Shown here: in pieces, positions 13,959 through 55,512 of the stretch
Position numbering within the stretch: the first letter of the stretch is position 1
How the letters are laid out: each line of letters begins with the position of its first letter
Assembly: GCA_016874005.1 (NCBI GenBank)
Contig: VGVQ01000005.1
Span: 1 to 64,000 of the forward strand
Length of the DNA stretch: 64,000 nucleotides
Source of the DNA: Gemmatimonadota bacterium
GTDB taxonomy: Bacteria; Gemmatimonadota; Gemmatimonadetes; Gemmatimonadales; GWC2-71-9
Direction: 5' to 3'
The notes under the pieces: model-generated
The model's input: only the letters and a program-made list of their open reading frames with translations
What the model was told of the DNA's origin: nothing
The model's database searches: none
Made by a program: the position numbers and the translations under genes

Positions 13959-16568
13959 ATGACGCTGGTCGTCCATCTCATCCCCCATACCCACTGGGAT
14001 CGCGAGTGGTACCTCACCGCGGCCCAGTTCGGGGCGCGGCTCGCCCCGGCCCTCGACGCGGTGGTCGATCTGCTGGAGCGGCAGCCCTCACTCCGCTTCC
14101 ACCTCGACGGCCAGGCGGTGCTGGTCGAGGACTATCTCGCCCGGCGCCCCGACGCACGAGTCCGTCTCGATCGCTTGGTCCAAGCTGGGCGGCTCGTGGT
14201 CGGGCCGTGGTACGTCCTCGCCGACGGCCTGATCCCATCGGGGGAGGCCGCGATCCGCAATCTGCTGCTGGGCAGGGATGTGGCGGCCCAGCACGGCGGG
14301 GCCGGCAAAGTGCTCTACAGTCCCGACGCGTTCGGCCAGCCAGGCACCGGTCCGCTCCTCGCGGCGGAAGCGGGACTGGTCGCCGGCGTGGTGTGGCGTG
14401 GCCTCGACCCAGCTCGGATCGGCCGGCGCGACCTGTTCTGGTGGCAGAGCGGCGAGCGCCGCCTCTTGACCCTCCACCTTCCCGCTCCGGGGTACGAATT
14501 CGGCGCCGACTTGGTCGCCGAGCCCGAACGGCTCGAGCAAACCTGGACCACGATCCGAACTGGCCTGGTCGAACGAGCGGTGTCGCATCACGTCGCGGTG
14601 CCGATCGGAGCGGATCATCACGCCCCAAGCGACCGGTTGGCGGACTTGGCGGAGCGGCTCGCTTCGATCGATCGCGGCAGCGAATTCCGGTACAGCACCT
14701 TCGAGGAGTACTTCGTGGCAGCGAGCGCGAGCATCGACGGGGCCGCCCCAACGTTCGAGGGCGAGTTGCGGCGATCCGGCGGTCACGCCTGGGCTCTCCA
14801 AGGCACCTTTGCCACCCGGTCCCGACTCAAACGCCAATACGGTGCCGCCGAGTTGACCCTGGCGCGGATCGCCGAGCCCGCGGTCGCCATCGCGAAGCTC
14901 GACCCGGGCACCCTCAGGGACGCCTGGCGCAGGCTGGTTCGAGCCCAGTTCCACGATACCCTCGCCGGGACGTGCTCGGATCCGGTTGCCCGAGAGCAGG
15001 CGGTTCGGGTGGCCGCGGTTCGCGCAGCCGCGGCGTCGGAGTTCGACCGCGGCGTGGCGCGGCTGATCGGCCACGACCCCGACGCCGTTCGAGAGCGGAC
15101 CGACCAGTCGCAGCCCCGGCTCGTGGTCTGGAATCCGGTGGCGAGAGCCCGTGGCGGCGTGACGGTGGTCGAGAGCACCTGGTTCGTTGCCGACGAGCTG
15201 GTCGGCCCCCCGGGAGGAAGGATCGCCCGGACCGGTCCTGGCGCGAAGGCGTGCGCCATTCGCGCCGGCTCTGGTGCCGCGCCGCTGGCGCTGCAGACCC
15301 TGGCCGTTCGCCGGGGACGCGAGCGGGTCGACGCCTCGAGGCACTACCCCGATCTCGACGCGGTCGACCGGGCCCATCTGGCTGTCGCGCTCGACCCGGT
15401 ACCCGGGCTTTCGGCCACGATCTACCGCATCACCGAGCCGGACGAGTCTCCGGCCGAGCCCGCCGATCCGGTCGTGGTACGGGGGCGGTCGGTGAGCAAC
15501 GGCCGGATCGGGTTCGAGGTCGACCGCCGGGGCCGGCTCGGCCTGCACGATCGGCATCGCGAGGTTCGCTACCACAATCTTGGAGCGCTCGAATGGACCG
15601 CCGATCGGGGTGACTGTTACACTCCCGAGCCCGGGCCCGCTCGCGGGTCGCTTTGGGTTGGTCCGATCGCCGCCATCGCCGCCGGCCCCCTGGTCGGCGC
15701 GCTCGCCTGGGAGTGGCGCCTCTCCGATGGGCCGGAGTCGATCGTGGGCCGAACCACGCTATCCCTCACGTCCGACAGTGACATCGGGAGGGTCCGGATC
15801 GTCCTCGAAAACCAGGCCAGCCAGCACCGGCTCAGGTGGAGTGCGCCCATCGGCGTTCGCGGCGAAGTGCTGGTAGGCGCTCCCCACGGGGTCGAACGCC
15901 GCCCGCCGGGTCGGCTCGACTCGAGTTGGCCCGGCGAGGTCGGCCTTCCGACCGGTCCCGGTCACCGGTTCGCGGCTGTCGCGGAGGGCGGTCGCGGGTT
16001 GGCGCTGTTGCTGCCCGGCTTCTTCGAATACCAGTGGACCGAAACCGGCACGCTCGCGGTGACACTGCTGAGAGCGGTAGGCGATCTCTCGCGCAACGAC
16101 CTGTCGACCCGCCGGGGGCATGCCGGTTGGGTCACCCCGACGCCGGAAGCCCAGGAACCGGGACGGCACGTCATCGAGCTGGCGCTCAAGCCGGTCGACC
16201 CGAGTGTTCTGGGAACGCCCGCCGCGCTGATCGAGGCGTGGGAGGACGCCTTTCTGCCGCCGATTCCGCTCTGGTACCGCCAGTCGCTGCCGTTGGTCGG
16301 AGGCGGCGGCTTCGAGCTCGCCGGACCGGGGTTGGTGCTGGAGGCGGTCGTCCCAGCTCGCGAGCGCCAGGCCCTGGTCATCCGCGTGCTCAATGTCTCG
16401 GCGCAGCCCGTCGAGGGAACCTGGCGGTGTCCCTGGCCGGTGGCGGAAGCGGTCCGGGTGCGGGGAGACGGAACCCCGCTCGGTCCCGTGCTGGTCCAGG
16501 GCCGGTCAGTGGGCTTCCGAGCGCAGCCGGGAGAGTTGGTGTCGGTCGAGATCGTTCCCCTGACCTAG
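13959..16568 (+). CDS. Glycoside hydrolase family 38 alpha-mannosidase
   Basis: The protein is 869 aa, close to bacterial mannosidases such as MngB. The N-terminal HTHWDREWY (about 10-18) is the GH38 hallmark and supplies zinc ligands. SPDAFGQPGTGPLL (about 118-131) carries the expected nucleophile Asp, and IGADHHAPSD adds His ligands. A helical bundle with QFHDTLAGTCSDPVAREQ (about 330) and a long beta-rich C-terminal region follow. There is no signal peptide, so it probably acts on imported mannosides or mannosyl intermediates in the cytoplasm. It marks the start of the sugar locus. Its last 63 bases overlap the convergent permease gene's 3' end. Confidence 0.93.
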   Translation: MTLVVHLIPHTHWDREWYLTAAQFGARLAPALDAVVDLLERQPSLRFHLDGQAVLVEDYLARRPDARVRLDRLVQAGRLVVGPWYVLADGLIPSGEAAIRNLLLGRDVAAQHGGAGKVLYSPDAFGQPGTGPLLAAEAGLVAGVVWRGLDPARIGRRDLFWWQSGERRLLTLHLPAPGYEFGADLVAEPERLEQTWTTIRTGLVERAVSHHVAVPIGADHHAPSDRLADLAERLASIDRGSEFRYSTFEEYFVAASASIDGAAPTFEGELRRSGGHAWALQGTFATRSRLKRQYGAAELTLARIAEPAVAIAKLDPGTLRDAWRRLVRAQFHDTLAGTCSDPVAREQAVRVAAVRAAAASEFDRGVARLIGHDPDAVRERTDQSQPRLVVWNPVARARGGVTVVESTWFVADELVGPPGGRIARTGPGAKACAIRAGSGAAPLALQTLAVRRGRERVDASRHYPDLDAVDRAHLAVALDPVPGLSATIYRITEPDESPAEPADPVVVRGRSVSNGRIGFEVDRRGRLGLHDRHREVRYHNLGALEWTADRGDCYTPEPGPARGSLWVGPIAAIAAGPLVGALAWEWRLSDGPESIVGRTTLSLTSDSDIGRVRIVLENQASQHRLRWSAPIGVRGEVLVGAPHGVERRPPGRLDSSWPGEVGLPTGPGHRFAAVAEGGRGLALLLPGFFEYQWTETGTLAVTLLRAVGDLSRNDLSTRRGHAGWVTPTPEAQEPGRHVIELALKPVDPSVLGTPAALIEAWEDAFLPPIPLWYRQSLPLVGGGGFELAGPGLVLEAVVPARERQALVIRVLNVSAQPVEGTWRCPWPVAEAVRVRGDGTPLGPVLVQGRSVGFRAQPGELVSVEIVPLT

Positions 16569-17342
16569 GCCGTCGGCGATCATGCTGCAGGCCAGCACCA
16601 GGATGACGAGCGCGATTCCGGGAGCGAGTCCTACCCAGGGCGCGTTGACGATCGTCTCGCGTCCCGAGGCGATCAAGGCGCCCCACGACGGCGTCGGGGG
16701 TTGCACCCCGAGCCCCAGGAACGACAACCCCGCCTCCAGGGTGATCGCCTGGCCCACCCCGAGCGCCGCGGCCGCGAGGACGGTGGTGCCGATGTTGGGG
16801 AGGATGTGCCGGACGACGGTGTGGCGGCGGCCGCCGCCTAACGCCTGCGCGGCGCCGACGTAGGGACGGCCCAGCTGGGCCGCCGACTCGGCGTAGACCA
16901 GACGGGCCAGCGGCATCCATCCCGTCAAGCCGAGGGTCGCGATCACCAGGCCGGCGCTGGGCTGCCAGAGGGCGGCCAGGAGCAACAGCAGGACCACCCG
17001 CGGCAAGGCCAGCGCGAAATCGGTGATCCCGAGCAACGCCGCGCGGACTCGGGGCCCGAGGATCGCGGCACTGGTCCCGACCACCACACCCATGGCCAAG
17101 GAGACGACCGTGGCGAGGAGCGCGACCGCCAGCGACACTCGCGCCCCGTGGAGCAGGCGGCTCAAGACATCCCGGCCCAGCCGATCGGTACCGAGGAGGT
17201 GGAGCACCCCGGCATCGTCCACCGCACCGGGCGGAAGGAACCGGGTCAGGACCACGTCGGTCCCGTCGAGGCTGGCCGCCGGGGCGGCCAGCGCCAAGGC
17301 CGCGAAACCCACCACGATCCCGGCGCCGAGTTTCGCCCTCAT
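16506..17342 (-). CDS. ABC transporter permease, oligopeptide/DppC type
   Basis: This 278-aa permease has about six transmembrane segments and the DppC/OppC signature: HLLGTDRLGRDVLSRLL near the N-terminus, and a C-terminal EAGLSFLGLGVQPPTPSWG. The binding-protein-dependent transport loop GAAQALGGGRRHTVVRHILPN (about 160-180) would contact the ATPase. Such permeases import peptides, nickel or oligosaccharides, and in glycan loci often carry disaccharides. The ATPase genes are not in this neighbourhood and must be encoded elsewhere or shared. The start overlaps the dppB-like stop by ATGA. The 3' end overlaps the GH38 gene convergently by 63 bases. Confidence 0.9.
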   Translation of the reverse strand: MRAKLGAGIVVGFAALALAAPAASLDGTDVVLTRFLPPGAVDDAGVLHLLGTDRLGRDVLSRLLHGARVSLAVALLATVVSLAMGVVVGTSAAILGPRVRAALLGITDFALALPRVVLLLLLAALWQPSAGLVIATLGLTGWMPLARLVYAESAAQLGRPYVGAAQALGGGRRHTVVRHILPNIGTTVLAAAALGVGQAITLEAGLSFLGLGVQPPTPSWGALIASGRETIVNAPWVGLAPGIALVILVLACSMIADGLGQGNDLDRHQLSRLRSEAH

Positions 17343-18304
17343 GATGGCCGGGTCCGCGGGTCGACCCGATGGAGAAATACCTCCGCGACCACCGAGCCGA
17401 CTACCACCAGCAACGCGCTGAGCGTGGTCGCGGCCATCACGACTGGATAGTCACGCGACTGGACGCCCTGGATCAGGACCTGGCCAACCCCCGGCCAGGC
17501 AAAGACTCCTTCGACGAACACCGCTCCCGAGAAGAGGGCGGGGAGCGACAACCCGAGCAGTGCCACGATGGGCACCAGCCCGTTGCGGAGATGATGGCGG
17601 AGCATCACCCGCGCCGGGCGCAGTCCCTTGGCCCGCGCCACCAGGAGATAGGGTTCGGAAGCGGCCGCGAGCAGGCTGCCGCGGGCGTAGCGGGCCACGG
17701 TGCCGATCCCGATCAGGGTCAGGGTCGCGAGCGGCAGCGCGAGGTGGGCCAACCGATCGGCGAGACGGCCGGCTGGAGTGAGGAACTCCGCATCGATGCC
17801 CGCCGCCCCGAACGCCGGGAACCATCGAAGGGCGTATCCGAATACCATGATCAGCAGGAAAGCCAGCCAATAGCCCGGAATCGCCGCCAGCACGACGGTC
17901 ACCGCCGACACGATCCGGTCCACCCACCGATGCCGACTCGCCGATTGGAACGCGGCCAGCAGGACGCCCACCGCGTAGGAAAGGGCGATCGACGCGCCGA
18001 CCAGGATCGCGGTCGCGGGCCAGGCCTGCCACAGCATGCTCGCGACCGGGCGGCCGGTGGCGATGCTCCGGCCGAAGTCGCCCCGGATCGCTCGGGCCAG
18101 CCAGCGCAGGTACTGCTCGGCCAGGGGTTGGTCGAGGCCCAGGGCGCGGGCCGCGATCTCGCGGTCGGTGGTGGTCGCCGCCGGTCCCAGCATCAAGGCG
18201 ATGGGATCGCCGGGGGCGGCGTGGAGCAAAAGGAACGTGAGGGTAACCACCCCGAGCACGACCAGCGGAGCGCGGAGAATGCCGAAGCCGAAGCTCGAGG
18301 CCAT
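17339..18304 (-). CDS. ABC transporter permease, oligopeptide/DppB type
   Basis: The protein is 321 aa from the ATG at 18304; the upstream extension to 18817 is antisense to the binding-protein gene. It shows the DppB pattern: an N-terminal helix (VVLGVVTLTFLLLHAAPGDP), an ALGLDQPLAEQYLRW loop, FGRSIATGRPV, the ATPase-contact loop ARAKGLRPARVMLRHHLRN and the C-terminal FVEGVFAWPGVGQ. It forms the inner-membrane channel with the DppC-like partner. A TAGATT box on the minus strand ends five bases before the ATG, so translation probably starts at the mRNA 5' end. Confidence 0.92.
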   Translation of the reverse strand: MASSFGFGILRAPLVVLGVVTLTFLLLHAAPGDPIALMLGPAATTTDREIAARALGLDQPLAEQYLRWLARAIRGDFGRSIATGRPVASMLWQAWPATAILVGASIALSYAVGVLLAAFQSASRHRWVDRIVSAVTVVLAAIPGYWLAFLLIMVFGYALRWFPAFGAAGIDAEFLTPAGRLADRLAHLALPLATLTLIGIGTVARYARGSLLAAASEPYLLVARAKGLRPARVMLRHHLRNGLVPIVALLGLSLPALFSGAVFVEGVFAWPGVGQVLIQGVQSRDYPVVMAATTLSALLVVVGSVVAEVFLHRVDPRTRPS

Positions 18305-18309
18305 GGAGC

Positions 18310-18319
18310 AATCTAAATT
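18310..18319. promoter_or_regulatory. Back-to-back overlapping -10 boxes of a bidirectional promoter
   Basis: Only 21 bases separate the divergent permease ATG (18304, minus) and binding-protein GTG (18326, plus). The ten bases AATCTAAATT hold TAGATT read on the minus strand (18315 to 18310, five bases before that ATG) and TAAATT on the plus strand (18314-18319, six bases before that GTG). The two hexamers share two bases. Both mRNAs would be leaderless, and simultaneous firing seems sterically excluded. Confidence 0.6.
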
Positions 18320-18325
18320 CAGGTC

Positions 18326-19744
18326 GTGTCGAGGCGCCTCGTCCTGTTCCTGCTGCTCGGAGCCTGTCTTCCGACCGCCGCTCGGCGGGGTCGCACGGTC
18401 GTGATGGCATCGGGGGCCGATCTCCAGAGCATGCACTCGCTGGTCACGACCCATCCCCTCGCCAAACAAGTCCAGCGGTACGCCCTGTTGACGACCTTGG
18501 TCCGCTACGACAGCGCCCTCGCGATCGCCCCGTACCTCGCCCGGACCTGGGAGTGGTCGTCGGATGGTCGGGTGCTGACCATGCGGCTCCACGGTGGTGT
18601 CCAATGGCACGACGGGGTCGCCACCACCGCCCGCGACGCGGCTTGGACATTGAACGCCGCGCTCGACTCCGCTTTCGGTTATCCCCGCCGGGGCGACTTG
18701 GCCGGTCTCGAGGGAGCCGACCCGTCGGACGACACGACTCTGATCCTGCGGTTTCTCGCGGCGCCTGGTCGGGTCCCGGATGTCCTCACGGATCTGGCGA
18801 TCCTGCCGGCGCACCACTTAGCCGCGATCGCGCCGTCGGAGCAGCGGGGCGCGCCCTGGACCCGCCGGCCCGTCGGCAACGGACCGTTCCGGTTCGTCCG
18901 TCACGAACCCAATCGGCGCTGGGTCTTCGAGGCCAATCCGGGGTTCCCGCCGTCGCTCGGTGGACGACCGCTGATCGACCGGCTGGTGATCGCGGTCGTC
19001 GACGATCCCACCACCAAACTGGCCGCGCTCGCCAGCGGGGAACTCGACTTCGCCGGGATTCAGCCGGCGCACGCCGACTTCGTCCGTCGCGACCCGGCGC
19101 TCGCGGTGGTGGATTACCCACTGCTGTTCAGCTATGTCGTGCTCTTCAACGCCAGGCGCGCGCCGTTCGACGACTGGCGGGTTCGGCGGGCCGTCGACCT
19201 AGCCATCGACCGGCAAGCGATCGTCTCCGGATACCTGTTCGGGTTCGGGACGCCAGCCTCGGCGCCGGTGCCCGGTGGCGGGGACGCCGCAAGGCCGCCG
19301 ATGTACGCACCAGGCCGCGGCAAGGCGCTGCTCGACTCGAAGCCGCTTCGGTTCGAGCTCCTCACCGTCGGTAGCGGCGAAGCCGCCATGGAGCAGATGA
19401 TCCAGCAGCAGTTGGCGCGCATCGGCGTCACCGTCAGCATCCGACAACTGGAGCTGGCCGCGTTTCTCGACCGGGTTCAGGTGGCCGGCGATTTCGACGC
19501 CGCCATCATGGGGCTGCCCGGCGACCTCGAGCTTGGCCACCTGAAGACCGTCTTCCGACTGGCCGGGATGCCGGTTCCGGCGGCGGCCGCGAACAGTGAT
19601 CTCGCCGCCCGGGTTGCCGATTCCTTGCCGGCGAGTTTTCTCTACCATGCTCGCGGCGTGCAAGGCGTCCAGCGGCGGATTCGCGGCGCCGCGTTGGACA
19701 TCCGCGGTGAGCTGGCCACGCTGCAGCACTGGACGGTCCCGTGA
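18326..19744 (+). CDS. Solute-binding lipoprotein of an oligopeptide/oligosaccharide ABC transporter (SBP family 5)
   Basis: The protein is 472 aa from a GTG start. The N-terminus (SRRLVLFLLLGACLPT) is a lipoprotein signal with lipobox LGAC, so Cys13 or so is the lipidated residue. The family-5 pattern follows: YALLTTLVRYD, LARTWEWSSDGRVLTMRLHGGVQWHDG, VGNGPFRFVRHEPN, FEANPGF, DDPTTKLAALASGELDF and VRRAVDLAIDRQAIV. It would capture a peptide or oligosaccharide outside the membrane for the two divergent permeases. The C-terminal half is somewhat shorter than in typical members (about 500 aa). Its stop overlaps the GHMP kinase start (GTGA), tying transport to sugar phosphorylation. Confidence 0.9.
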   Translation: MSRRLVLFLLLGACLPTAARRGRTVVMASGADLQSMHSLVTTHPLAKQVQRYALLTTLVRYDSALAIAPYLARTWEWSSDGRVLTMRLHGGVQWHDGVATTARDAAWTLNAALDSAFGYPRRGDLAGLEGADPSDDTTLILRFLAAPGRVPDVLTDLAILPAHHLAAIAPSEQRGAPWTRRPVGNGPFRFVRHEPNRRWVFEANPGFPPSLGGRPLIDRLVIAVVDDPTTKLAALASGELDFAGIQPAHADFVRRDPALAVVDYPLLFSYVVLFNARRAPFDDWRVRRAVDLAIDRQAIVSGYLFGFGTPASAPVPGGGDAARPPMYAPGRGKALLDSKPLRFELLTVGSGEAAMEQMIQQQLARIGVTVSIRQLELAAFLDRVQVAGDFDAAIMGLPGDLELGHLKTVFRLAGMPVPAAAANSDLAARVADSLPASFLYHARGVQGVQRRIRGAALDIRGELATLQHWTVP

Positions 19745-20727
19745 CGGTGTCCTGCCAGGCCCCCTGCCGTCTGGACTTCGCGGGGGGCTGGACCGACGTC
19801 GAACCATACCCGAGCGACCACGGTGGCGTGGTCGTCAACGCGGCCATCGCGCTCTACGCCACCGCCACGGTGACCGCCGGCCAAACCGACTACTCCATCG
19901 AGTCCCTCGACCTGAACAGGACCGCTCGATTCGCCGACCCGACGCCGCTGGCGCGGGACGAGCTGATTCTCCTCCGCGCGGCGCTCCAGCTGGCCGCCGA
20001 CGCGCCCTGCCGGCTCGTCACCCGGTCCGACGCGCCACCGGGGTCCGGGCTGGGCAGTTCCGGGGCCATGGACGTCGCGATGGTCGCGGCCCTCGATCGA
20101 GCCGCCGGACGAAGCCACTTGGCGCCGGAAACGGCCCATCGAGCCTGGCTCCTCGAGGCGGTGGTGGCCGGGCTCCCCGGCGGCAAGCAAGACCAATACA
20201 GCGCTGCCCTCGGTGGGTTCCAGCGGCTCCGGTTCCGGGGCGGCCGCCCCGAAATCGAAGCGCTGTCGCTCGAGGCCGCGTTCCGGGATTGGCTGGCCCG
20301 CCACCTGGTGGTGTGCTACACCGGGCAGTCGCGGGTCTCTGGCGAGACGATTGCCCGGGTGATGGAGCGGTACCGCCGGCGCGACGCCGCGACCTGCGCC
20401 GCCCTCGATGGGTTGACGGTCGCCGCCGAGCGGATGGCGGAAGCGCTTGCTCGCGGCCAAGTTTCCGAGATCGGACGCCTCTTGACCACCAACTGGCGCC
20501 ATCAACAAGCACTGGACGACAGCATGGCGACGCCGCTGATGCGGGAACTGGAGCGCACCATGGAAGCGGCCGGCGCCATCGGCGGCAAAGCCGCCGGCGC
20601 CGGGGCGGGCGGCACGATGTTCTTCCTGGTTCCGAAGGACCCGGAGGCCGCCGCCACCCGGGCCGCGAGTCTCGGCGTCGGTATCCTCCCCGTGGAATGG
20701 GCCATGGCAGGCGTTCGGTCATGCTGA
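19741..20727 (+). CDS. GHMP-family sugar kinase (heptose-7-phosphate/fucokinase-like)
   Basis: The kinase is 328 aa from a GTG that overlaps the previous stop. It carries APCRLDFAGGWTDVEPY, GGVVVNAAIALYATATV, the phosphate-binding loop PPGSGLGSSGAMDVAMV (about 99-115), GGKQDQYSAALGGFQ and the C-terminal GGKAAGAGAGGTMFF. This layout matches the branch that holds D-glycero-D-manno-heptose-7-phosphate kinase (HddA) and related sugar-1-kinases, not galactokinase. It should phosphorylate a free or phosphorylated sugar with ATP. Because it follows a binding-protein gene and precedes a polysaccharide lyase, the most likely substrate is a sugar imported by the same transporter. Confidence 0.87.
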   Translation: MTVSCQAPCRLDFAGGWTDVEPYPSDHGGVVVNAAIALYATATVTAGQTDYSIESLDLNRTARFADPTPLARDELILLRAALQLAADAPCRLVTRSDAPPGSGLGSSGAMDVAMVAALDRAAGRSHLAPETAHRAWLLEAVVAGLPGGKQDQYSAALGGFQRLRFRGGRPEIEALSLEAAFRDWLARHLVVCYTGQSRVSGETIARVMERYRRRDAATCAALDGLTVAAERMAEALARGQVSEIGRLLTTNWRHQQALDDSMATPLMRELERTMEAAGAIGGKAAGAGAGGTMFFLVPKDPEAAATRAASLGVGILPVEWAMAGVRSC

Positions 20728-23438
20728 CGGGCGCCGAGATCGAGCGAAGACGATCGCTCCTCGGCGAGGGCGACCTGCCCGCGTTGCTGGAGACCCTTCG
20801 GAAACGGTGCGCCGACTGGGTCGCGAAGCCGATCGTCGTTCCCAACTCAAAAGCGGAGCTGTCGATCGCGGGCGGAATCTGTCCCGCCTGCTCGGCGCCG
20901 CTGGTGTTCGACCCCGAGGCCCCGGCCGCGCACCGCTGCTCCCGCTGCGACGAGGTGGCTCGGGGAGCGCGGCACGACGGCCACTGGGTCAGGGGTCAGC
21001 ACCTCTGGGTTGCCGAACGGGCCGCCGAGCTGGCGGCGGTGGCTGCGCTCACCGATGACCAGACCCTCGCCACCTCGAGTCGGGATCTGCTTCGCCGCTA
21101 CTACCGGCTCTACCACGAGATTCCCAACCGAGACAACACCCTCGGTCCCTCCCATCTGTTTTTCTCCACCTACCTCGAATCCATCTGGGTCCTCAACTAC
21201 CTGGCCGCGGCGTTCCTCCTCCGGGAGCGTGGCTGGCTCGGCGAGGACGATCTCGAGGCCGTCAACGCCATCGCCGACGAAGCGGCGGCCCTGATCGGCG
21301 ACTTCAACGAGGGACTGAGCAACCGGCAGACCTGGAACGCCGCCGCCTTGGTGGCGATCGCGGTCTGGTTCGGTGACGAGGAGCTGGCGGAAACCGCGTC
21401 CCATGGGCGAAGCGGACTACTCGGCCATCTCACCGACGGCTTCGACGACGACGGGATGTGGCACGAGGGCGAGAACTACCACCTCTTCGCCCTCCGAGGA
21501 CTGCTGATCGGCATCGACTGGTGTCGCGCCGCGGGCATCGAGCTGCTCGAGGACGCCGCCCTGGCCGAACAGCTTCGACGAGCGTTGCTGGCGCCGTCGC
21601 TCACCGCGCTGCCGGACGGGACCTTTCCGGCCCGGCGCGACTCGCGCTACGGTGTGTCGCTCTCCCATCCAGCCTACCTGGAGTGTTGGGAACGGGGCGT
21701 GGCGCTGTCCGAGCACGAGGACAGGCAAGACGACGGCGACGACCTGGTGTCCTGGCTCGCCGAGCGGTACCGCCGGCCCAGCGCGCCGGGCCAGACCTAC
21801 GATGCCTATCTCCACGACGCCGGTCGCCCGGCGCGAGAGCGCAGCGGCCGGACCGACCTGTCGTGGTGGATGCTGCTCACGATGGCGCCGACCCTGCCCG
21901 AGGCCGCGGCTCGCTCCACCCCGGGAAGCAGACTGCTGGCGGCGCAGGGGGTCGCGGTCTTGCGCCAGCACGATCGCTACCTCAGCGTCGAATGCGGCAG
22001 CTTCGCCGGCGGCCACGGCCATCCGGACCGGTTGCACTTGAGCCTCTTCGCCGACGGGGTGGCGTGGCTCGCCGATCCGGGTACCGGCTCTTATCAGACC
22101 CGCGATCTCTTCTGGTACCGATCGACCCTGGCCCATAACGCTCCCCGGCTGGACGGCCAGTCCCAGCAGTCCACCGAATCGAGGCCGGTCGCGTTCGCCG
22201 AAAACGGCGATTGGGGCTGGGTCGTCGCCGAGCACGGCCCGATTCGTCGCGCGGTGATCCACGGTCCCGAATGGCTGCTCGACGTCGTCGACTTGGACGG
22301 CGGAGACACCTCGCGGGTACTCGAGCTTCCCTGGCATCTCGATGGGGATCTCGAGTTCGCCTCGGCCGGCGACCTCGAGCCGGCGGCGCTGGCCGACGAG
22401 TTCGTCACCGACACGGCGCGCTTCGTTCCCGCCGCCGGGACCGATCCCGTCGCGGTCGCCTCCAAGGACGGCAAACGAGTGCGGCTGCACCTGGTGGGCG
22501 GCGAGGTCCTCCGCGCGGTGGGGCCGGGTCGGCCGGGAGAGGGGCGTCGGCCGTTCGTCGTGGCCCGCCAGGAAGGAACCAAGGCGCGGCTGGTGGCGGT
22601 GGCGGATTTCTCGGGCACCGTCAGTCGGGTCGACGCGGGTGACGCGATCGTGGTCCACGGCAGGAGCCCGGTCTCGGTTCGACTGGGCGGATCGGACGCC
22701 ACGGTGACCGTGGAGGGCAAAGCGATCCAACTGGGCGGCGCCCTCGCTCGTCGCCCCGCGCCCAAGCCGCTGATGGCGGAGCGACCGATCGCCAATCGCG
22801 GCGAAGCGCTCCGAATCGTCGAGGTACCGCCGTGCGACGGCACCCTGGCCGGCTTCGAGGACTGCCCCCCGCTGGTGATGGCCGACGAAGCCCACTACTA
22901 CCGCACCGAGGAGCCCTATTCCGGCGAGGAGCAGTTCTCCGCTCAGGCCTGGGTGGGTTGGGATAACACCGCTTGGTACCTGGCGGTGCGGGTGACCAAG
23001 CCCGAGGTCTGCCTCGGTCCAGCGGTGCCGCCGCCGCTCGGCCGTGACAACGAAGCCGACGACATCCACTACGACGGGATCCAGGTCTACTACCGGGCGC
23101 TGGACGGCGCCGAGCGGGGCTACCTCATTCGCCCCGCCGAAGGCGGCGGCATCTTCGCGCGGCCGATTCCGGGATCGCCGGCGACGCCGAGCCAGCTCGA
23201 CGGGAGCGCGGCGGTGCTGGACGACGGCTACCTCCTGACGGTGGCGCTGCCCTGCCCGGAGCTTGGCTCGGCCCGAGTCGGGTCGACGGTGGCATTCGAC
23301 CTCGTCGTCAACGAGATGCGCTCCGATCGGGCGACCCGGGCCGGCCAGTTGGCCTGGGGCGGCGGCTCGGGCTGGGCCTATCTTCGGGGCGACCGTCGCG
23401 ATCCCTCGCTCTGGGGCGAACTCGAGCTGCTGGGATGA
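20721..23438 (+). CDS. Heparinase II/III-type polysaccharide lyase with C-terminal CBM9-like domain
   Basis: This 905-aa protein starts at the ATG at 20721, overlapping the kinase stop by seven bases. An early zinc-finger-like pair of C-x2-C motifs (CPAC and CSRC, about 55-75) precedes an alpha/alpha-toroid domain (about 90-390, with NRQTWNAA and HEGENYHLFALRG). A heparinase II/III beta-sheet domain follows (SVECGSFAGGHGHPDRLHLSLF and LADPGTGSY, about 425-465). Residues about 715-905 look like a carbohydrate-binding family 9/DOMON sandwich (QAWVGWDNTAWYLAVRV, DGIQVYYRA). It would eliminate uronic-acid-containing glycans. No signal peptide is evident, so it may act on imported oligosaccharides. 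It is the central enzyme of the locus. Confidence 0.88.
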   Translation: MLTGAEIERRRSLLGEGDLPALLETLRKRCADWVAKPIVVPNSKAELSIAGGICPACSAPLVFDPEAPAAHRCSRCDEVARGARHDGHWVRGQHLWVAERAAELAAVAALTDDQTLATSSRDLLRRYYRLYHEIPNRDNTLGPSHLFFSTYLESIWVLNYLAAAFLLRERGWLGEDDLEAVNAIADEAAALIGDFNEGLSNRQTWNAAALVAIAVWFGDEELAETASHGRSGLLGHLTDGFDDDGMWHEGENYHLFALRGLLIGIDWCRAAGIELLEDAALAEQLRRALLAPSLTALPDGTFPARRDSRYGVSLSHPAYLECWERGVALSEHEDRQDDGDDLVSWLAERYRRPSAPGQTYDAYLHDAGRPARERSGRTDLSWWMLLTMAPTLPEAAARSTPGSRLLAAQGVAVLRQHDRYLSVECGSFAGGHGHPDRLHLSLFADGVAWLADPGTGSYQTRDLFWYRSTLAHNAPRLDGQSQQSTESRPVAFAENGDWGWVVAEHGPIRRAVIHGPEWLLDVVDLDGGDTSRVLELPWHLDGDLEFASAGDLEPAALADEFVTDTARFVPAAGTDPVAVASKDGKRVRLHLVGGEVLRAVGPGRPGEGRRPFVVARQEGTKARLVAVADFSGTVSRVDAGDAIVVHGRSPVSVRLGGSDATVTVEGKAIQLGGALARRPAPKPLMAERPIANRGEALRIVEVPPCDGTLAGFEDCPPLVMADEAHYYRTEEPYSGEEQFSAQAWVGWDNTAWYLAVRVTKPEVCLGPAVPPPLGRDNEADDIHYDGIQVYYRALDGAERGYLIRPAEGGGIFARPIPGSPATPSQLDGSAAVLDDGYLLTVALPCPELGSARVGSTVAFDLVVNEMRSDRATRAGQLAWGGGSGWAYLRGDRRDPSLWGELELLG

Positions 23439-31229: not shown

Positions 31230-31235
31230 TAAATT
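31230..31235 (+). promoter_or_regulatory. TAAATT box five bases before the MBL-hydrolase start
   Basis: TAAATT is followed by CAACC and the ATG at 31241. No Shine-Dalgarno fits in the gap, so a leaderless transcript is likely. Confidence 0.55.
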
Positions 31236-31240
31236 CAACC

Positions 31241-32071
31241 ATGCGATTCATCCGCCTGGGCCTCCTCGCCGCGATCGGAAGCGGCCTCGTCACCTCGGCT
31301 CTCCCCGCCCAACTCGGCTACCAAGTCTATGCCGTGCAGTACGCCCAGTTGCCGGCCTTCCCTGTGAGCGCCCTGGTGCTGGGGGCGGATACCACTCGCA
31401 CCAAAGACGTCTCGATGATGGTCTGGGTGCTCCGAAGCCCGACTAGAACCATCCTGGTCGACGCGGGGTTCTACCGCGACGAGTTTCTGAAGAGTTGGAA
31501 GGTCGAGAAGTTCGTCCGGCCCTCCGCCGCCATCGCCAAACTCGATATCAAGCCCGAGCAGGTCACCGACGTCATCATCACCCATCTCCACTGGGATCAT
31601 GCCGACGGCGCCGATCTGTTTCCCAACGCCAACGTCTGGGTCCAACGGGCCGAGTATGAGCACTACCAGGCACCCGAGCGGCAACAACGAACGGGCGTCT
31701 TCCCGGTGACGATGGCGATGCTGGAGAAGTTCAAGCGGGCCGGCCGCCTCAAGCTGGTGGAGGGGGATTCCCAAGCGGTCGCCCCGGGCGTCCGGGTCTA
31801 CACCGGCGGGCGGCACACCCACGAATCGCAGTACGTGAGCGTCGCCACCGGGGGCTCCGAGGCCATCATCGCCTCGGACAACCTCTACCTCTACGAGAAT
31901 CTCGAGCGGCGCCGGCCGATCGCCGCCACCTGGGACACGGTGTCCAACCTCCGAGCCCAGGAGCGGATGCTCCGGCTGGCGGGCCCGCGCCGGCTGATCG
32001 TCCCCGGCCACGATCCGGCCGTCTTCGAGAAATTCACCCTGATCGAACCCGGCATCGCCATCATTCGGTAG
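31241..32071 (+). CDS. Secreted metallo-beta-lactamase-fold hydrolase, AHL-lactonase-like
   Basis: The enzyme is 276 aa with a signal peptide (about 1-23, ending SALPAQ). The dinuclear zinc motif HLHWDHADG (about 110-118) and the downstream ligands His (GGRHTHESQ), Asp (IIASDNLYLYEN) and His (VPGHDPAVF) are all present in order. The spacing and the SMMVWVLRSPTRTILVDAGF start strand resemble AiiA/AttM N-acylhomoserine lactonases and related lactonases. It would open lactone rings outside the cytoplasm, possibly quenching quorum signals. A true AHL substrate is not shown by sequence. Confidence 0.87.
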   Translation: MRFIRLGLLAAIGSGLVTSALPAQLGYQVYAVQYAQLPAFPVSALVLGADTTRTKDVSMMVWVLRSPTRTILVDAGFYRDEFLKSWKVEKFVRPSAAIAKLDIKPEQVTDVIITHLHWDHADGADLFPNANVWVQRAEYEHYQAPERQQRTGVFPVTMAMLEKFKRAGRLKLVEGDSQAVAPGVRVYTGGRHTHESQYVSVATGGSEAIIASDNLYLYENLERRRPIAATWDTVSNLRAQERMLRLAGPRRLIVPGHDPAVFEKFTLIEPGIAIIR

Positions 32072-53845: not shown

Positions 53846-54337
53846 ATGTTCCGATTTCCACGGGCCACTTCGCTCGTCGCGCTCTGGGCCATCGTCGGCT
53901 GCGGCGCCCCGGCCGCTTATTTCGACGACGCCCAGCGAGCCGCCGTGGCCGACACCATCCGGGCCGAGGCCGAAAAGGTGATCGCCGCGCTGGCCTCGAA
54001 GGACGTCAATAACCTGGTCCAGCTGTTCACCCCGGACGCGGACCTGGTCTACGTCGACAACGGCCACATCTATCCCAATCGCGACGCGCTGGCGGCCGCG
54101 GCGGGCGGGTTCTTCAAGCGGATCGGGTCGGCGGGGGGTAAGTGGGATCCGGCTCACGTCATCGCGCTCTCGCCGACGGCTGGCGCGTTCACCGGGATCT
54201 TCCGGCCCGAGATGGTCGATACCGCGGGGCAGGCCCTGTGGACATCGGGGAAGATTTGGACCTTCGTCTATCAGCGGCGGGCGACCGGTTGGCAGATCGT
54301 CCAGGCCCACGAGGTCAACGCCCGGCCCGGCGAATGA
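53846..54337 (+). CDS. SnoaL/DUF4440-like lipoprotein
   Basis: The protein is 163 aa from the ATG at 53846, behind a near-perfect AAGGAGGGT. The signal (TSLVALWAIVGCG) has a lipobox ending in Cys about 19. The mature part is an NTF2-like cone: helix DTIRAEAEKVIAALASKDVNNLVQLF, DADLVYVDNGHIYP, AFTGIFRP, and a final sheet KIWTFVYQRRATGWQIVQAHEVN. Proteins of this type are periplasmic, some are isomerases, and most are of unknown role. It has its own ribosome site 65 bases after the MATE gene. Confidence 0.85.
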   Translation: MFRFPRATSLVALWAIVGCGAPAAYFDDAQRAAVADTIRAEAEKVIAALASKDVNNLVQLFTPDADLVYVDNGHIYPNRDALAAAAGGFFKRIGSAGGKWDPAHVIALSPTAGAFTGIFRPEMVDTAGQALWTSGKIWTFVYQRRATGWQIVQAHEVNARPGE

Positions 54338-54375
54338 ACGCCGCGCGGTGACGGCGAGGGAGCCGCCGATGCCCG

Positions 54376-55512
54376 TCAGCCAGGTCGGGTAGCTGCCGCG
54401 AACCGATTGCCGACCGCGGTCACGAGCAGCAACCCCGCCGCCACCCCGAACGGGGTCGCTCCGCCGAGGACCGCGAGGCTCGCCCCTCCGACGGGCGCCA
54501 GCGCCCGGGCCGCCAGCGCGAACGCGCCGAGCCGCCCGACCGTTACCCCGTAACCCAGGCCGCCGGTGAACTCCCGAGCCGCGACCGCCCGCAAGATGGT
54601 GGCGGCACCGTTGCCTGCGCCGAACACCGCTCCCGCCACCGTCATTACCGCCAGCGATCGAGTGGTCGGGATCGTCGCCATGGCGATGGCCTGGGCCGCG
54701 AGCGAGATGCTGAACACCCGAGCCACGCCCCAACGGGTCACCAGCGAAGCCATGACGGCCCGGGCCGGAAACTGGGCCAGACCCATCGCCGAGATGACCG
54801 TGGCCGCGACCGCCAGGGAATCGCCCCGGAGCGCGAGATAGGTGGGCAAGAACGCGGAGATCAGCACTCCGCCGAACGCGGACCCGAACGCTCCGGATCC
54901 GAGCCACCAGAGCGAGGCCCCGAACGGCGGCGGGTCGGCGGGGGTGGGGAGCGTCCTGAGCCGAGCCGGCGCGAGAACCGCCCGATAGATGAGCGCCGTC
55001 GCGGCGAGCGAACCGGCAGCGCCGACCAGCATCCAGCGCCAGCCGAGGTTTTCGATGGCAATGCTCGCGATCGGGACGAAGATGGGACTCGCCAGCGCGC
55101 CGCAGAGAGTGACGATGGTGAGGGCGCGGTTCTTGTCCGTGGTGGTGTCGAACCAGCGGTCGACCAGCGCGAAGGCCGGTTCGTAGAGCGTCATCGCCAT
55201 CGCGACGCCGGCCACCATCATCGCGAGGTAGAGCCCCACGGTCGAATCGGCGACGGCCCACCCCAGCAGCGCCGCGATGCCAAACCCGATACCGCCGAAG
55301 AAGACCATCCGTTCGCGGCCGTGGTCGATCCAGCGGCCCACCCGCAGCCCGGTGAGTCCGCTGATGGCAAGGGCGAGCGAGAATGCTCCCGCGACGGCCA
55401 CCGGCGACGCTCCGAATTCCCTGACGAGGAGCGGCTGAACCAGGCCGTAGCTGTAGAAGAGCGCGCCCCAGCTCACGCATTGGGCCACTCCGAGCCAGAG
55501 GGCCCGGCCCAT
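54376..55512 (-). CDS. MFS transporter of the arsenic-type cassette
   Basis: The protein is 378 aa from the ATG at 55512 (TAATG overlap with the flavoprotein stop); the longer frame is upstream-gene sequence. About twelve hydrophobic segments are seen, with VAQCVSWGALFYSYGLVQPLL in helix 1, GRWIDHGRER as the conserved cytoplasmic loop and ATIPTTRSLAVMTV later. It resembles small MFS exporters that sit with arsO/arsN-type genes, and is therefore a candidate exporter of arsenite or an organoarsenical. That role rests on context. Confidence 0.8.
   Translation of the reverse strand: MGRALWLGVAQCVSWGALFYSYGLVQPLLVREFGASPVAVAGAFSLALAISGLTGLRVGRWIDHGRERMVFFGGIGFGIAALLGWAVADSTVGLYLAMMVAGVAMAMTLYEPAFALVDRWFDTTTDKNRALTIVTLCGALASPIFVPIASIAIENLGWRWMLVGAAGSLAATALIYRAVLAPARLRTLPTPADPPPFGASLWWLGSGAFGSAFGGVLISAFLPTYLALRGDSLAVAATVISAMGLAQFPARAVMASLVTRWGVARVFSISLAAQAIAMATIPTTRSLAVMTVAGAVFGAGNGAATILRAVAAREFTGGLGYGVTVGRLGAFALAARALAPVGGASLAVLGGATPFGVAAGLLLVTAVGNRFAAATRPG

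What the first reader, a model, noticed from the sequence alone, without database searches (positions are those of the whole stretch)
18302..18328. A 21-base bidirectional promoter giving two leaderless mRNAs
The divergent permease and binding-protein start codons are 21 bases apart. Between them lies a TAGATT on one strand and a TAAATT on the other, overlapping by two bases, with five and six bases to the respective start codons. No room exists for ribosome sites or separate -35 elements. Firing in one direction should exclude the other, so the ratio of binding protein to channel could be set by promoter choice.
Basis: partly seen in the sequence, partly recalled or inferred. Interest (0 to 1): 0.7.

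Follow-up and report, generated by a model that had tools for sequence, protein, structure and literature searches.

The report
Two-way promoter producing two leaderless mRNAs
In a soil bacterium (Gemmatimonadota), the whole 21-base gap between two genes of one transporter appears to be a single promoter read in both directions whose two mRNAs both start at their start codons, an arrangement kept in related species and apparently evolved more than once.

Summary
21 bases separate the ATG of an ABC permease (minus, 18304) from the GTG of a lipoprotein binding protein (plus, 18326). They hold TAGATT (minus) and TAAATT (plus), which share one TA, 5 and 6 nt from the starts; there is no Shine-Dalgarno and no -35 match. 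Comparative evidence strongly supports a double-leaderless bidirectional promoter. In 58 distinct related Gemmatimonadota loci, a -10 hexamer lies 5-7 nt before the start codon in 53 cases on the binding-protein side and, with a relaxed motif, about 52 on the permease side; other distances give only a few. Five species of the genus and five of a sister clade keep the 21-nt gap and shared TA while the flanks diverge. Two other lineages (22-nt gap) reach it separately, and a LeuS/chemoreceptor pair in this genome shows the same form. The geometry matches the published ~23-bp class of bacterial bidirectional promoters; new are that both arms are leaderless, that the element fills the whole intergenic region, and that it recurs. 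No transcript has been measured. Verdict: new variant of a known kind.

The parts
18302..18304 (-). ATG start codon of permease 1 (BPD_transp_1), inferred minus-strand transcription start (+1 at 18304)
   Evidence: a -10 at 5-7 nt before the start is conserved in relatives
18310..18315 (-). minus-strand -10 hexamer TAGATT, 5 nt from ATG
18314..18319 (+). plus-strand -10 hexamer TAAATT, 6 nt from GTG; its TAA is also the in-frame stop that fixes the GTG start
18314..18315 (.). TA shared by both -10 elements (-12T/-11A of each strand); invariant in all compact relatives
18326..18328 (+). GTG start codon of binding protein, inferred plus-strand transcription start (+1 at 18326, 22 bp from the divergent one)
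17339..18304 (-). ABC transporter permease 1 (BPD_transp_1 / BPD_transp_1_N)
16506..17342 (-). ABC transporter permease 2 (BPD_transp_1), same operon
18326..19744 (+). family 5 solute-binding lipoprotein (SBP_bac_5)
19741..20727 (+). GHMP kinase, overlapping the end of the binding-protein gene (operon); order kept in a relative (L065)

Best explanation
The 21-bp gap is a complete, minimal bidirectional sigma-70-type promoter. Two -10 hexamers on opposite strands share their -12T/-11A step. RNA polymerase binds in one of two orientations, opens DNA outward from the shared TA and starts at, or within a base of, the A of ATG on one side and the G of GTG on the other, 22 bp apart. Both mRNAs are leaderless and are translated without a Shine-Dalgarno. 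One arm makes the two permeases; the other makes the binding lipoprotein, the GHMP kinase and a heparinase-like enzyme. Shown by sequence: the geometry, conservation, absence of SD and -35, and enrichment of leaderless signals. Inferred: the transcription start positions, steric exclusion, and co-expression of the two halves of the transporter from one element. In ordinary conditions the two directions probably fire independently at low rates rather than trading off.
For: 58 distinct related loci: TANNNT sits 5-7 nt before an in-frame binding-protein start in 53; by offset the counts are 15, 35 and 3 at 5, 6 and 7 nt, and 0-6 at any other distance. On the permease side [TG]ANNTT sits at 5-7 nt with offset counts 8, 29 and 15, and 0-3 elsewhere. 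Twelve loci have the two hexamers overlapping exactly by TA. Across the ten 21-nt loci, seven of ten core positions are (nearly) invariant and mean core conservation is 0.87, against 0.52-0.57 in the flanking coding DNA. These ten species form a supported clade with about 60% protein identity. L009 and L030 have the form outside that clade; one clade for all twelve is rejected (AU p 0.0001), as is a clade of L009+L030 (p 0.0016). Leaderless signals are enriched in this genome: 14 of 170 divergent-side genes at 6 nt, against about 2 per other offset; SD words peak at 4-7 nt, so lack of SD here means something. A second pair in the genome, leuS/chemoreceptor, has the same form while sister species have longer gaps.
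Against: No RNA data exist for this MAG. Promoters inside either neighbouring gene cannot be excluded. Promoter consensus for Gemmatimonadota is inferred, not measured. More distant relatives (below about 52% identity) mostly keep the divergent gene pair but show no TANNNT at this distance.
Confidence: 0.83

Rival explanations
1. The palindrome-like core (AATCTARATT) is an operator for a dimeric transcription factor, and transcription starts elsewhere.
For: L004/L005 have a perfect 10-bp palindrome AATCTAGATT; binding-protein-dependent transporters are often regulated.
Against: Symmetry is not kept: AATGTAGACT, AAGATACCTT and AATTTACCTT keep TANNNT on both strands but not a palindrome. In relatives with longer gaps the two hexamers separate, each staying 5-7 nt from its own start, as expected of -10 elements and not of an operator.
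Confidence: 0.07
2. Only one direction (binding protein) is leaderless from this gap; the permeases are transcribed from a promoter inside the binding-protein gene with a leader.
For: The permease -10 is weaker in many relatives (GAGATT), and only 21 of 58 meet the strict motif.
Against: The permease hexamer still peaks sharply at 5-7 nt from ATG, and there is no SD in the gap for a leadered permease mRNA to use.
Confidence: 0.08
3. Promoter choice actively sets the binding-protein to permease ratio: firing one way substantially suppresses the other.
For: Two polymerases cannot occupy overlapping -10s; activation of one direction represses the other at E. coli bidirectional promoters (PMC12825309).
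Against: The same study found basal activity too low for competition at all five promoters tested. The gap has no -35 match and no conserved extra site to drive high occupancy.
Confidence: 0.15

Closest known systems
Bacterial bidirectional promoters (Warman et al. 2021, as described in PMC10268837 and PMC12825309)
   Same: -10 elements on opposite strands share key bases; divergent starts 7-25 bp apart, with 18, 10 and 23 bp commonest. Sharing -12T/-11A corresponds by arithmetic to the 23-bp class; here the spacing is 22 bp. 24% of the E. coli ones lie between divergent genes, often functionally linked.
   Different: Here both products are predicted leaderless, so the promoter fills the whole intergenic region, with no -35 match on either side and no 5' UTR. 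It is conserved between species at one locus.
Leaderless bacterial genes with a TANNNT box (PMC3160421; M. tuberculosis PMC3898074)
   Same: TANNNT about 6 nt before ATG/GTG, no Shine-Dalgarno.
   Different: Those are treated as single-direction promoters; Gemmatimonas is not mentioned in the main text of PMC3160421.
M. tuberculosis prpD / Rv1129c divergent leaderless pair (PMC3898074)
   Same: Two divergent neighbours, both mapped as leaderless.
   Different: Start sites 1254630 and 1254510 are 120 bp apart, so separate promoters rather than a shared -10.

Membership tests
Bacterial bidirectional promoter | -10 elements on both strands sharing key positions | tested here: met
   shared TA, present in all 12 compact loci
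Bacterial bidirectional promoter | divergent transcription start sites 7-25 bp apart | tested here: inconclusive
   22 bp predicted from -10/start-codon geometry; no RNA data
Bacterial bidirectional promoter | both RNAs made from the one element | not testable with these tools
   needs in vitro transcription or TSS mapping
Leaderless gene | -10 box at about 6 nt from the start codon | tested here: met
   5 and 6 nt here; conserved peak at 5-7 nt in 58 loci
Leaderless gene | no Shine-Dalgarno before the start | tested here: met
   none in the 21 nt, while the genome does use SD
Leaderless gene | mRNA 5' end at the start codon | not testable with these tools
   needs 5'-end mapping
Palindromic transcription-factor operator | dyad symmetry kept between orthologues | tested here: not met
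   symmetry lost in the AATGTAGACT, AAGATACCTT and AATTTACCTT loci

The most novel reading that the evidence does not exclude
A class of 'zero-UTR' bidirectional promoters: in leaderless-rich bacteria, divergent gene pairs repeatedly collapse to a ~21-22 nt intergenic region in which one shared TA step serves two leaderless genes, so promoter and both translation starts form one element with no room for any other signal.
Probability: 0.7. Interest if true: 0.6.

Novelty: new variant of a known kind. Interest (0 to 1): 0.55.

Why it matters
It is close to the smallest possible expression control for two divergent genes. It shows how bidirectional promoters and leaderless translation can combine, gives a conserved natural series (separate, 22-nt, 21-nt and perfectly palindromic versions) for testing polymerase competition without -35 or UTR effects, and offers a sequence rule for finding leaderless divergent pairs in uncultured phyla.

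Tried and rejected
Rfam search of the window: nothing. Search for a -35 in either direction: 1-3 of 6 matches at any spacer, no consistent motif. Search for a further conserved operator in the gap: flanks are not conserved. Genus-wide pattern scans found the form at this locus in all five genus genomes that carry the close orthologue; the other hits mostly lack paired ORFs and look like chance, as the control counts are similar. The leuS/chemoreceptor compact form is not conserved in sister species. My simple gene caller picked a shadow ORF over permease 1, so its calls are used only in bulk. Literature: no held paper has both 'Gemmatimonas' and 'leaderless'; the 11 with both 'leaderless' and 'bidirectional promoter' do not, by title and abstract, describe this. 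Warman 2021 itself was not held, so its content is taken from the later papers.

Full report
What is there. The sequence between the divergent starts reads CAT-GGAGC-AATCTAAATT-CAGGTC-GTG at 18302-18328. Every number in the finding is right: a 21-nt gap, TAGATT on the minus strand 5 nt from ATG, TAAATT on the plus strand 6 nt from GTG, overlapping by the two bases TA at 18314-18315. The flanking genes are a BPD_transp_1 permease and an SBP_bac_5 binding protein. The binding protein cannot start upstream, because the TAA of its own -10 hexamer is an in-frame stop, and from the GTG it begins with a lipoprotein signal (MSRRLVLFLLLGAC).

The organism. Named relatives of the binding protein are nearly all Gemmatimonadota MAGs. 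The window's genome is 3.88 Mb in 49 contigs, 97% complete. In a 664-kb sample, TANNNT boxes are enriched exactly 6 nt before the starts of genes with a divergent upstream neighbour (14 of 170, about 2 at other offsets), and SD words peak 4-7 nt before starts. So this genome uses both leaderless and SD initiation, and the absence of an SD in this gap is informative.

Conservation. The permease and binding protein are divergent neighbours in nearly every relative examined. In 58 distinct loci of the nearer group, a TANNNT box precedes an in-frame binding-protein start by 5-7 nt in 53, with offset counts 15/35/3 and almost nothing at other distances. The permease side shows a slightly weaker hexamer, [TG]ANNTT, at 5-7 nt (8/29/15) and 0-3 elsewhere. 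In most relatives these two -10 elements are separate, in gaps of roughly 46-130 nt. In the window's genus (five species) and in a sister clade (five species) they overlap by the TA and the gap is 21 nt in all ten: N5-AATCTARATT-N6 in one and N6-AATGTAGACT-N5 in the other. The core is conserved (mean 0.87) while the flanks vary (0.52-0.63).

Repeated origin. A tree of permease plus binding protein puts the ten 21-nt loci in one clade. L009 and L030, with a 22-nt gap and the same shared TA, lie elsewhere; forcing all twelve into one clade is rejected (p-AU 0.0001), as is joining L009 with L030 (p-AU 0.0016). The form was therefore gained several times, or gained and lost. A further case in the same genome, between leuS and a chemoreceptor gene (CAT-GGTAGG-AATCTATATT-GTCGGG-ATG), is species-specific: sister species have longer gaps there. 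A detail supports a -10 reading: in the separate-gap relatives the permease hexamer is usually GAGATT, but in the compact ones it begins with T, as it must when -12T of one strand is the partner of -11A of the other.

How it most likely works. The geometry is that of published bacterial bidirectional promoters: shared -10 bases and starts 7-25 bp apart, with 18, 10 and 23 bp commonest (PMC10268837, PMC12825309). Sharing -12T/-11A gives 23 bp with two 6-nt discriminators, and 22 bp here because one is 5 nt (my arithmetic). No -35-like hexamer is found on either side. M. tuberculosis offers a precedent for TANNNT promoters without a -35 motif and for leaderless divergent pairs, but with starts 120 bp apart (PMC3898074). 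What is new is both arms leaderless from one shared -10, so that the intergenic region is nothing but the promoter.

What is not shown. No transcript has been measured. Mutual exclusion at one instant follows from polymerase size, but regulation by exclusion does not: in E. coli, basal activity of all five bidirectional promoters tested was too low for competition, and only strong activation of one side repressed the other. A simpler role, keeping both halves of one transporter expressed together from a minimal element, fits as well and is my preference.

Noticed in passing
L145 / G000:C1:262076-262103: A second shared-TA double-leaderless arrangement, between leuS and a chemoreceptor-like gene (gap 22 nt); sister species have leaderless-type leuS signals but longer gaps.
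   Followed up: yes
window 16506-16568: The 3' ends of permease 2 (minus) and the GH38 alpha-mannosidase gene (plus) overlap by 63 bp, tail to tail.
   Followed up: no
window 16506-18304 and L065, L071: No ABC ATPase gene adjoins the permeases here; the next gene is a GH38 gene in the window, a PD40 gene in L065 and an amidohydrolase in L071. The ATPase is presumably encoded elsewhere.
   Followed up: partly
window 18326-23438; L065 4332-7348: The binding-protein arm is followed by a GHMP kinase and a heparinase II/III-like gene in the window and in L065, suggesting uptake of a sugar or uronate-type compound.
   Followed up: partly
own genome C15, about 11318 (-) and 11388 (+) of the sample that begins at C15:7001: Another divergent pair with TATCTT boxes 6 and 7 nt before both starts, about 70 bp apart: a separate, non-overlapping double-leaderless pair.
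   Followed up: no
window 31230-31243: TAAATT-N5-ATG before a metallo-beta-lactamase-fold-like gene at 31241: another likely leaderless start.
   Followed up: no
window 54320-54389 (-): ARAGORN reports a tRNA-like gene with a four-base anticodon (ccct); possibly a false positive.
   Followed up: no
L142 (VAWH01000109.1): A contig labelled Actinobacteria carries this Gemmatimonadota locus and sits inside their tree; probably a binning error.
   Followed up: no
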